From IMG/VR virus record IMGVR_UViG_3300024974_000009, positions 1-38,775 of that record: a stretch of 38,775 nt of DNA, one strand, 5' to 3'. Below are positions 26,184 to 28,931 of this stretch, one piece after another. A model generated the notes under the pieces. The model was given only the letters and a program-made list of their open reading frames with translations, searched no databases and was not told the origin of the DNA. The DNA is from a virus. The position numbers were made by a program, and so were the translations under genes. Each line of letters begins with the position of its first letter. Positions within the stretch are counted from its first letter, which is position 1.

Positions 26184-26303
26184 GGTAGGGGCTTGCTCTG
26201 CAAGGCGTTTCTGCTCAAGCATTTCATAAAGCATAGGACCAAGTATTTTGGCTGCTTTTTTGGCGTCTGGCTTATTTGCAGTGATAAATTCTATTTCAAG
26301 CAT
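26127..26303 (-). CDS. Small protein downstream of the DGR reverse transcriptase
   Basis: 58 residues: starts MLEIEFITANKPDAKKAAKI, ends KQPSQLDSGDSVA. The ATG at 26303 overlaps the reverse-transcriptase stop by 8 bases, suggesting translational coupling. The first 40 residues should be helical and charged; the C-terminal tail is encoded by the inverted repeat, so both it and the integrase on the opposite strand read SGDSVA. It is unlike any family I know. Overlap with the integrase end (57 bases, opposite strand) lowers the confidence that the whole frame is used. Confidence 0.45.
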   Translation of the reverse strand: MLEIEFITANKPDAKKAAKILGPMLYEMLEQKRLAEQAPTSRRKLKQPSQLDSGDSVA

Positions 26304-27714
26304 TTTTATGTACCTTTGCTCGATAGGTCTTAGTTATGGCCATGTTTATGCAATGGCCTTTATCTCTAAGTGCATTAGCTATTTTAGTGCGGTCACGATG
26401 GCTTTTTGATGCCTGTCTCAACAATCCAAAATAGCTATTAGCCATTTCGAATGTTTCATCTGCGGGTGACTTTTTAATCTGATTAATAGCTTCATTGACA
26501 GTGCGTTTACGCGTATATCTATACCAAGGCTTAATCACTTGACCAACAAAATCAACTCCACGATCAACCGGCTGCAGAATGGTTTTAGTAGGGTTTAGAT
26601 TGGCATTTAGCTTAGTAGGTAAGAACTCATTAATACGTGCTAAAGCACTGTTTAACCACTGTGGTGACTCATGCAATAGAACAAAGTCATCAACGTAGCG
26701 GATATAGTGCTTAGCTCCTATTTGATGCTTAATGAATTGGTCTAGTGCATTTAGATAGATATTGGCAAAGAACTGAGAGCTTAGATTGCCAATGGGTAAG
26801 CCCAAGTGACTTGGTTGATTAGTTAAGCGTTTGTGTGGTGGTACTAGATCTATTTTTTCAGGATAGCCACGCAATTCAAAGTTAGTACGTGGATCATGAA
26901 ATAGAATGACGTCTGATAACCATAACCACCATGACTCAGTCACTTTAGTAGCGACTTGTTTGCGCAATACATTTTTATCGATAGCAACAAAGAAGTTAGC
27001 TAAATCACACTTTAAGTAAAAACAAGGCTTACTCCAGTTCTCAGTAGCGCTGCGAATCTTTGACTCTAGGCGTTTAGCTGCATAAAGAGTGCCGCGCCCT
27101 GGTATGCATGCGCAACTATCATGAATGAATGATGCATAAAAGCGTGGTGAAATTCGATTGTAAAATAAGTGGTGCACAATGCGATCACGAAAGTCAGCAG
27201 CCCATACTTCACGGGGTTTTGGTCTAGTGATGACAAAGCAAATAGATTTACCTGGTGCATAAGTATTTGCTTTTAATTCATCATAAAGCTTAATTAAGTT
27301 GTGCTCTAGGTTTAATTCAAACGCTAAAGCGCTCGATGTATTACGTTTATTCTTACGGCAATCTAAATAGGCTTGTACCAACTCTTCAAAAGCAAAATCA
27401 GCAACTAGGCGTTCGGTATGATCTGCGGACAGCGCGGGCGCGCAACTCGTTATTCTTGTTGTTGTTGTTCTGGTTGCCGTTGTTGAAATTCTGATACCAG
27501 GCATAACTTGAATTAGAGGCGTGCTGCGTTGTATCTTACTATCTACGTCGCTCTGCCGAAGGACTGATTTAATGTCAGCGCCGATCAGTGGAGTAACTGC
27601 GCTAGACCTATCCTGAAAGCTATCAGTGGTATCTATACTGCGCATAGCGGTAGCCTTTTGAGCTAGCGGTAAAACCAGATTATTTAATCGTACGGTCATA
27701 TTAGCCTTAACCAT
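26296..27714 (-). CDS. DGR reverse transcriptase (template repeat inside its frame)
   Basis: 472 residues if started at ATG 27714, which overlaps the Avd stop as TAATG. RT motifs: CDLANFFVAID (motif A, Asp237), HLGLPIGNLSSQFFANIYLN (303-322, the retron/DGR/group II-type motif), YIRYVDDFVLLH (Asp342, Asp343), then KLNANLNPTKT and FVGQVIKPW. The RT domain begins near FAFEELVQAYLDCRKNKRN (108-126), where most DGR RTs begin; residues 63-98 are the translated template repeat. No ATG occurs between codon 71 and the late C-terminus, so translation must start at or before the repeat. The enzyme copies TR RNA with errors at adenines and transfers the cDNA to VR. With Avd it forms the active complex. 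Confidence 0.95.
   Translation of the reverse strand: MVKANMTVRLNNLVLPLAQKATAMRSIDTTDSFQDRSSAVTPLIGADIKSVLRQSDVDSKIQRSTPLIQVMPGIRISTTATRTTTTRITSCAPALSADHTERLVADFAFEELVQAYLDCRKNKRNTSSALAFELNLEHNLIKLYDELKANTYAPGKSICFVITRPKPREVWAADFRDRIVHHLFYNRISPRFYASFIHDSCACIPGRGTLYAAKRLESKIRSATENWSKPCFYLKCDLANFFVAIDKNVLRKQVATKVTESWWLWLSDVILFHDPRTNFELRGYPEKIDLVPPHKRLTNQPSHLGLPIGNLSSQFFANIYLNALDQFIKHQIGAKHYIRYVDDFVLLHESPQWLNSALARINEFLPTKLNANLNPTKTILQPVDRGVDFVGQVIKPWYRYTRKRTVNEAINQIKKSPADETFEMANSYFGLLRQASKSHRDRTKIANALRDKGHCINMAITKTYRAKVHKNA
27421..27527 (-). repeat. DGR template repeat (TR)
   Basis: 107 bp, aligned without gaps to VR1 (28101-28207) and VR2 (28583-28689). On the minus strand it is rich in AAC/AAT codons: in the target frame it reads NNGNQNNNNKNNE, the typical template with Asn codons at variable positions. 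Substitutions in VR1 (10) and VR2 (15) all lie at template A. Its final 29 bases (27421-27449 on +) are invariant and G/C-rich, as expected for the initiation-of-homing region. Confidence 0.96.
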
Positions 27715-28064
27715 TATGAAACAGACGATGCGGAACGACGCCAGCCATTGGCCTGTTTACCTATGCTGCTTGTGAGTTCAATGACCTTTGCATACTGGCC
27801 AGTTGAAATCAGGCGTTTATCACGTGATAGGCGAATGAGTAACTCTAAAACCTGTTGTTTTTCTACAAGCTTTAAAAGATGAGGCACTTTCTCACGTGAT
27901 ACATTGGCTCTAAATATAAGCGTGACAATATCAACGGATTCGTCACGAAGCTTACTGCCAATGCTCTGTTTGAAATCACGTGGCATGTTCTTAGCCAAAT
28001 CAGTGATCACGTCCAGAAGGTCGTAAGCAATCTTATAAATAGGTAGGTCTGTATGGTTTGCCAT
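27714..28064 (-). CDS. avd: DGR accessory variability determinant (Avd-like, four-helix bundle)
   Basis: 116 residues, all-helical. Pattern: LPIYKIAYDLLDVITDLAKN, MPRDFKQSIGSKLRDESVDI, VTLIFRANVSREKVPHLLKL, VLELLIRLSRDKRLIS, and IGKQANGWRR, matching Avd proteins of DGRs and the related four-helix bundle family. Avd forms a pentameric barrel that binds RT and the template RNA. It lies between the second target and the RT, the classical order target - avd - TR - RT. The ATG at 28064 has no clear ribosome site (T-rich upstream), and its TAA overlaps the RT start (TAATG). Confidence 0.93.
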   Translation of the reverse strand: MANHTDLPIYKIAYDLLDVITDLAKNMPRDFKQSIGSKLRDESVDIVTLIFRANVSREKVPHLLKLVEKQQVLELLIRLSRDKRLISTGQYAKVIELTSSIGKQANGWRRSASSVS

Positions 28065-28086: not shown

Positions 28087-28536
28087 TTACTGAATAATTA
28101 ATCTGCGGACAGCGCGGGCGCGCAACTCGCCACCCTTGCTGGTGTTGATCTGGTTGCCGTTGTAGAAATTCTGATACCAGGCAGAACTTGAAATAGAGGC
28201 GTGCTGCTCATTTGTCCAATACCATGCCTCTTCAAACTCTTCTTTAAGGTTGGCATATAGCAATGCTTGCTCACGTCTATTTGGTAACTCACCACCTTGT
28301 TCTTTAGCCCATGTGAGTGCATCAGTCCAATTAATCTCTGATTGATGACCATCGAGTAAAATCAAGTGATAGCTAGATTCACCATCTTTACCTAAGATTA
28401 GACCTGCATAACGCTCACCTGCTTTAAGTGATATTTCAGTATGTGGAAATACATACTCAGTAGTTTGTTTTTCAAAGCTTGAAATCAGGCTTAATATTTC
28501 ATCCTGCTTAGCTTTGATGGTTTGTAATGTGATCAT
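28087..28536 (-). CDS. DGR target protein 1 (C-type-lectin-like, carries VR1)
   Basis: 149 residues with an AGGAG ribosome site. An N-terminal helix (QTIKAKQDEILSLISSFEKQ) precedes the lectin-like domain: LKAGERYAGLILGKDGESSY, HLILLDGHQSEINWTDALTW, GGELPNRREQALLYANLKEE, AWYWTNEQHAS, ending GELRARAVRRLIIQ. Residues about 110-146 are encoded by VR1. Compared with the template, eight Asn or Tyr codons are changed, at surface-loop positions of the DGR lectin fold. No signal peptide or membrane segment, so it is cytoplasmic unless carried on the virion. Ligand unknown. Confidence 0.93.
   Translation of the reverse strand: MITLQTIKAKQDEILSLISSFEKQTTEYVFPHTEISLKAGERYAGLILGKDGESSYHLILLDGHQSEINWTDALTWAKEQGGELPNRREQALLYANLKEEFEEAWYWTNEQHASISSSAWYQNFYNGNQINTSKGGELRARAVRRLIIQ
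28101..28207 (-). repeat. DGR variable repeat 1 (VR1)
   Basis: 107 bp, 10 mismatches to TR, all at template A: five to G, two to C and three to T on the minus strand. It encodes the C-terminal end of target 1; the invariant 29-bp end is at 28101-28129. Confidence 0.96.
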
Positions 28537-28571: not shown

Positions 28572-28931
28572 CTAAATAGCTAATCTGCGGACAGCGCGGG
28601 CGCGCAACTCGTTACCCTTGTAGTGGCTGTCCTGGCCGCCGTTGTCGAAACCCTGACACCAGGCACAACTGGAATCAGAGGCGTGCTGCTCATTTGTCCA
28701 ATACCATTCAGGGTTGAATTGGTCTTTTGATTGGTTGAATAGTAGGGCGCTTTCTGCACGGTTAGGTAGGTCGCCACCAAGTGATTTAGCCCACTCCATA
28801 GCATTATCCCAATTGCCATCATCTTTATCGCCTGTAAGTAGAATGATGTGGCTGCCAGTGCCATCTGGGTTGATGATTGCCCCTGCGTAGATTTCGCCAA
28901 TATTTAATTCTGGTTTAGTGATTTGGTTCAT
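28572..28931 (-). CDS. DGR target protein 2 (C-type-lectin-like, carries VR2)
   Basis: 119 residues, AAAGG ribosome site. Same lectin-like core as target 1 without the N-terminal helix: NIGEIYAGAIINPDGTGSHI, ILLTGDKDDGNWDNAMEWAK, GGDLPNRAESALLFNQSKDQ, EWYWTNEQHAS, ending NELRARAVRRLAI. Residues about 81-116 are encoded by VR2. VR2 differs from TR more than VR1 does, and two Tyr codons of the template have become Cys (SSCAWCQ), which could form a disulfide or bind metal. The two targets are clearly paralogues by duplication including their 3' flank. Ligand unknown. Confidence 0.93.
   Translation of the reverse strand: MNQITKPELNIGEIYAGAIINPDGTGSHIILLTGDKDDGNWDNAMEWAKSLGGDLPNRAESALLFNQSKDQFNPEWYWTNEQHASDSSCAWCQGFDNGGQDSHYKGNELRARAVRRLAI
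28583..28689 (-). repeat. DGR variable repeat 2 (VR2)
   Basis: 107 bp, 15 mismatches to TR, all at template A. It shares the invariant 29-bp end (28583-28611) with VR1 and TR. The A/T-rich flank just beyond (28561-28582) resembles that of VR1 (28076-28100) and not that of TR. Confidence 0.96.

What the first reader, a model, noticed from the sequence alone, without database searches (positions are those of the whole stretch)
27421..27714. The template repeat lies inside the reading frame of the reverse transcriptase
The RT frame is open from ATG 27714 (coupled TAATG to Avd) through the TR to the RT domain, and no ATG occurs between codon 71 (itself inside the TR) and the C-terminus. So the RT must start at or before the TR, and the RNA template is also protein-coding: residues 63-98 are the TR read in another frame than in the targets. 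In most DGRs the TR is in a non-coding gap. This links the production of RT and template, and constrains both.
Basis: partly seen in the sequence, partly recalled or inferred. Interest (0 to 1): 0.75.

Follow-up and report, generated by a model that had tools for sequence, protein, structure and literature searches.

The report
Mutation template inside its enzyme's gene
In this phage the RNA template that drives targeted mutation, and a folded RNA just before it, both lie inside the reading frame of the copying enzyme; over 100 related phages keep that frame joined although the peptide it would encode is under no selection, which suggests that the RNA helper moved to the other side of the template and left the enzyme no other place to start.

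Summary
A diversity-generating retroelement (DGR) lies on the minus strand, and its 472-aa RT frame opens at ATG 27714, overlapping the avd stop, and runs through the TR (27421-27527) into the RT domain. The 'extension' before the TR is not ordinary protein sequence: 27527-27730 is a covarying structured RNA, Rfam RT-15 (E=1.4e-33), abutting the TR. In 123 non-redundant relatives with RT-15, the TR-to-RT phase holds in 118 of 122. Only 7 have an ATG after the TR, and all 4 out-of-phase loci are among those 7. All 105 loci with no ATG, GTG or TTG after the TR keep an open in-frame ATG in the TR or RT-15. Yet dN/dS is 0.79 over RT-15 and 1.02 over the TR, against 0.22 in the RT, and AlphaFold gives residues 1-103 no structure. 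So passage of the frame is conserved, not the peptide. Other DGRs keep a structured RNA (Phage_DGR, RT-14) between TR and RT; here it is missing and RT-15 sits 5' of the TR. The close relative L010 has separated extension and RT, so fusion is not essential. TR/RT-ORF overlap is already described; the 5' RNA and dual reading are the new variant.

The parts
26296..27714 (-). RT open frame, 472 aa; RT fold from residue 109 (about 27390) on; residues 1-103 predicted without structure
27527..27730 (-). RT-15 structured RNA (Rfam RF03018), inside the RT frame except for its first bases, which overlap the end of avd; abuts the TR
27421..27527 (-). template repeat (TR); 3' part GTTGCGCGCCCGCGCTGTCCGCAGA is the IMH-like end shared with both VRs
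27688..27727 (-). hairpin 1 of RT-15: holds avd stop, ATG 27714 and ATG 27699 in its stem, SD-like AAGG in loop region; stem supported by covariation
27714..28064 (-). avd (bAvd-like, PF22296)
28087..28536 (-). target gene 2 (Lcl_C-like C-type lectin fold), VR2 at its C-terminus
28572..28931 (-). target gene 1 (Lcl_C-like), VR1 at its C-terminus

Best explanation
This is a phage DGR of a clade in which the structured helper RNA lies 5' of the template (RT-15) instead of 3' of it (the spacer 'Sp' of BPP-1). With no non-coding spacer left between TR and RT, the RT is translated from a start in RT-15 (hairpin 1 ATGs 27714/27699, or ATG 27645) or, less likely here, in the TR (27504), so ribosomes read RT-15 and TR as a disordered N-terminal tail whose sequence does not matter; only an open frame in phase with the RT is kept. 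SHOWN: RT-15 next to the TR, frame and phase conservation, absence of amino-acid selection, absence of a recognisable 3' spacer RNA. INFERRED: that RT-15 recruits RT-Avd as Sp does; that translation really starts upstream; and that, because the start codons sit in RT-15 stems, RT-Avd bound to RT-15 would shut off its own translation and release the same RNA as template (as group II intron RTs do at DIVa, from own knowledge).
For: RT-15 hit E=1.4e-33 at 27527-27730, and hits in 18 of 20 first-fetched relatives. 28 of 50 pairs have two-sided compensatory changes, 96.2% of cells paired against 26-41% when slid. Distance RT-15 end to RT core divisible by 3 in 118 of 120 loci with 14 in-phase lengths; TR end to RT core in phase in 118 of 122 with 9 in-phase lengths, and 0 stops in 868 linker codons in frame against 14 and 42 in the other frames. 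ATG after TR in 7/123 here versus 37/45 in other DGRs; the 4 out-of-phase loci all among those 7. Of 105 loci with no ATG/GTG/TTG after TR, all have an upstream in-frame ATG before any stop. 63 of 80 fully open loci have an in-frame ATG in hairpin 1. dN/dS 0.79 (RT-15), 1.02 (TR in RT frame), 0.53 (linker), 0.22 (RT). Residues 1-103 pLDDT below 50. TR to RT-core distance median 22 nt here, 168 nt in 38 VP58.5-type and other loci, some of which carry RT-14 just 3' of the TR; BPP-1 Sp is Rfam Phage_DGR. No such family matches 3' of the TR here, and four-fold-site diversity is flat at the RT 5' end.
Against: No direct evidence of translation. RT-15 dN/dS is hardly different between frames, so purely RNA-level constraint explains the sequence there. 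43 loci have a stop in RT-15 or further on (22 of class B, 21 of class C), mostly in a Pseudomonas clade in which the RT-15 part is also out of frame. Seven distant Bacteroidales-type loci also have a short TR-RT gap (median 47 nt) yet an ATG after the TR, so a short gap alone does not force the overlap. RT-14 was found in only 6 of 40 other-DGR loci scanned, so many 3' spacers are inferred from spacing alone. The loci are related, so counts are not independent, and most were found by a pattern that requires part of RT-15.
Confidence: 0.6

Rival explanations
1. The RT starts inside or just after the TR at a weak or non-standard start (ATG 71, CTG 95, TTG 112); the open frame further upstream is a by-product of RNA conservation and common descent.
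For: dN/dS near 1 before the linker; a Pseudomonas clade keeps RT-15 out of frame and can only start in the TR; BPP-1 RT has just 13 residues before the aligned start.
Against: In-frame length changes inside RT-15 (70 of 78 class A loci) and in the linker; loci such as L025 and L086 have no ATG in or after the TR; ATG 71 in the window lacks an SD.
Confidence: 0.25
2. The extension is a real protein domain of the RT, for instance for binding Avd or RNA.
For: Peptide looks conserved to the eye (MVKAxMTERxxNLVVPLAHKATAMR) and is open in 80 loci.
Against: dN/dS 0.79-1.02; no predicted structure; absent from the RT in L009, L010, L072, L077 and L113 if they start at their ATG after the TR, with intact RT frames.
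Confidence: 0.05
3. The RT and the template are on separate transcripts, so the overlap has no regulatory meaning.
For: [quoted passage not shown]
Against: avd, RT-15, TR and RT are contiguous and overlapping on one strand in the window; no transcript data.
Confidence: 0.2

Closest known systems
[quoted passage not shown]
   Same: TR overlaps the 5' end of the RT ORF
   Different: that class is based on annotated ORFs; the section read discusses no frame conservation, no selection test and no structured RNA
Bordetella phage BPP-1 DGR (mtd-avd-TR-Sp-brt)
   Same: avd, TR, RT order; A-specific TR/VR differences; lectin-type targets; RT homologous to the solved DGR-type RT chain (E=1e-37)
   Different: BPP-1 has its structured RNA (Rfam Phage_DGR) between TR and brt and brt starts after it; here none there, RT-15 5' of TR, RT frame through TR
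DGRs with Rfam RT-14 RNA (e.g. Bacillus phage BalMu-1)
   Same: structured RNA abutting the TR, next to an RT gene
   Different: RT-14 lies 3' of the TR
Vibrio phage VP58.5 type DGR
   Same: RT frame opens before the TR and has no ATG after it in 4 of 6 loci
   Different: TR read in the target frame; 121-nt gap between TR and RT core; no RT-15 in the three loci scanned
Group II intron RT with its start in DIVa (from own knowledge, not verified here)
   Same: RT start codon inside the RNA element that the RT would bind
   Different: no intron here; analogy of regulation only

Membership tests
Diversity-generating retroelement | TR/VR pair with differences at TR adenines | tested here: met
   TR/VR mismatches within the TR are at A for both VRs
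Diversity-generating retroelement | RT of the DGR type | tested here: met
   best solved relative by far is the 8ub7 RT chain (328 aa), E=1e-37
Diversity-generating retroelement | Avd and lectin-type targets with C-terminal VR | tested here: met
   bAvd 6.7e-16; Lcl_C 2e-5 and 2e-6, both below Pfam's cut-off
Diversity-generating retroelement | mutagenic retrohoming | not testable with these tools
   needs experiment
Rfam RT-15 RNA | covariance-model score above gathering threshold and covarying helices | tested here: met
   141.3 bits vs 82; covariation
BPP-1-type DGR with 3' spacer RNA | structured RNA (Phage_DGR or RT-14) between TR and RT start | tested here: not met
   31 nt from TR end to RT core; no family match there
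DiGReF group 3 | TR overlaps 5' end of RT ORF | tested here: met

The most novel reading that the evidence does not exclude
A DGR subclass with its RT-recruiting RNA 5' of the template, in which one RNA is both the RT's mRNA and the mutagenesis template, start codons sit inside the recruiting RNA, and cDNA synthesis is primed without a 3' spacer, by a route different from BPP-1.
Probability: 0.35. Interest if true: 0.8.

Novelty: new variant of a known kind. Interest (0 to 1): 0.6.

Why it matters
In BPP-1 the spacer 3' of the template recruits RT-Avd and primes cDNA synthesis. A clade of more than 100 phage loci seems to do without a recognisable one and has a conserved RNA on the opposite flank, so it poses a direct question: how is the cDNA primed and how is the RT recruited? 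It also gives the little-described Rfam RT-15 a concrete place (DGR template flank). It is a case where an mRNA would have to choose between being translated and being copied.

Tried and rejected
(1) Embedded 3' spacer inside the RT coding start: no dip in four-fold-site diversity and no Rfam match above chance. (2) Pairing of the invariant RT-15 UCUGGU with ACCAGA in the TR, suggested by a joint fold: exact ACCAGA is missing in 47 of 122 loci, and a group of Pseudomonas-type TRs cannot pair at all; probably conserved target codons. (3) The folding energy of the single window strand gives no signal (z 0.75); only covariation does. (4) Extension as a protein domain: rejected on dN/dS and structure prediction. 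(5) Papers on RT-15 or RT-14: none held; the 2018 DGR survey, the 2025 RT-Avd-RNA paper and the RNA-discovery papers could not be read.

Full report
What is there. On the minus strand lie two lectin-type target genes, avd, the TR and an RT. The window is a virus record of 38,775 bases. The RT frame 26296-27714 begins at ATG 27714, which shares its A with the avd stop, and stays open through the TR (27421-27527). In-frame ATGs stand at codons 1, 6, 24 and 71, then none until 424; the first standard start after the TR is TTG 112, inside the first RT helix of the model. The TR differs from both VRs within its length only at adenines. The finding is therefore correct apart from the late ATGs at 424 and 458.

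What the extension is. Rfam places RT-15 RNA (RF03018) at 27527-27730, E=1.4e-33, i.e. all of the frame before the TR plus the last bases of avd. The same RNA is in 18 of the 20 first-fetched loci scanned. On 18 sequences, 28 of 50 pairs show two-sided changes that keep pairing, 96.2% of cells are paired against 26-41% for slid controls, and no shuffle reaches the observed values. Hairpin 1 holds the avd stop and the ATGs at 27714 and 27699 in its stem and an AAGG in its loop region.

Is the frame maintained? I collected 131 non-redundant RT loci, 123 of them with RT-15. In 80 the RT frame is open from hairpin 1 through the TR; 22 have a stop in RT-15, and 21 a stop between RT-15 and RT. RT-15 end to RT core is a multiple of 3 in 118 of 120, over 14 different lengths from 120 to 165 nt. 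TR end to RT core is in phase in 118 of 122, over 9 lengths, with no in-frame stop in 868 linker codons against 14 and 42 in the other two frames. Only 7 of 123 have an ATG after the TR (L009, L010, L072, L077, L108, L113, L155); the 4 out-of-phase loci (L010, L072, L077, L113) are all among them (Fisher p 4e-6, not corrected for relatedness). All 105 loci without ATG, GTG or TTG after the TR have an in-frame ATG upstream before any stop. In 45 loci of other DGRs, 37 have an ATG after the TR. So passage of the frame is selected wherever the RT lacks its own start after the TR.

Is the peptide selected? No. Pooled dN/dS in the RT frame is 0.79 over RT-15 (other frames 0.86, 0.92), 1.02 over the TR (0.41 in the target frame), 0.53 in the linker and 0.22 in the first 30 RT codons, where third positions vary 0.40 against 0.16-0.17. 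AlphaFold gives residues 1-103 pLDDT below 50 and no secondary structure, with the RT fold starting at 109. In L010 (RT 84% identical) a 91-aa gene lies between a 105-aa extension ORF and an RT with its own ATG.

Why would a DGR do this? In BPP-1 the RNA between TR and brt is the spacer that recruits RT-Avd and primes cDNA (PMC12875486); Rfam calls it Phage_DGR, and I find it there. In six of 40 other-DGR loci scanned (L167, L197, L198, L202, L204, L207) Rfam RT-14 lies directly 3' of the TR. The TR-to-RT-core distance has a median of 168 nt in 38 VP58.5-type and other loci but 22 nt in the RT-15 clade. Here nothing matches 3' of the TR, and four-fold-site diversity at the RT 5' end is as high as elsewhere. 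The simplest reading is that the structured RNA of this clade sits 5' of the TR, and that the RT, left without a leader, takes its start from RT-15 or the TR. That RT-15 binds RT-Avd, and that this would compete with translation, is inference.

Known and new. TR overlapping the RT ORF is group 3 of the DiGReF survey (PMC3521204), and Roux et al. state that the TR is intergenic in most cases (PMC8144416). Vibrio phage VP58.5-type DGRs also run the RT frame through the TR, in the target frame. New here, as far as the held papers show, are the position of RT-15 at the TR, the phase conservation without amino-acid selection, and the exchange of a 3' for a 5' RNA flank.

Limits. Loci are related; most were fetched with a pattern containing part of RT-15, which biases RT-15 presence but not frame or phase. 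Metagenome assemblies can err at repeats. No expression data exist. Key papers were not held.

Noticed in passing
L067 (upstream of RT; copy at about 6918 in RT orientation) and L113 (copy at about 7411): The sequence in the TR position is nearly a copy of a variable repeat (88 of 90 and 74 of 78 identical, A-poor: 15-19% A), as if the template had been overwritten by a mutated copy.
   Followed up: partly
L010:2717-2992: A 91-aa gene inserted exactly between TR/extension ORF and RT in the closest relative; its stop overlaps the new RT start.
   Followed up: partly
L204, L167, L197, L198, L202, L207: Rfam RT-14 RNA sits directly 3' of the TR, suggesting that RT-14 is the DGR spacer of these lineages.
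   Followed up: partly
L169:1237-2514, L168:1270-2556: Annotated RT genes of Vibrio phage VP58.5 and Aeromonas phage phiARM81mr start before the TR; in VP58.5 the TR is read in the target frame, so the RT would carry a lectin-like fragment.
   Followed up: partly
L034: RT-15 was not found upstream of the RT and the RT frame reads into target-like sequence: a deletion by TR/VR recombination or an assembly error.
   Followed up: no
L040-L046: Bacteroidales-type loci (genome contigs) have the TR in the RT frame read as in the target, while related viral contigs have an ATG after the TR.
   Followed up: partly
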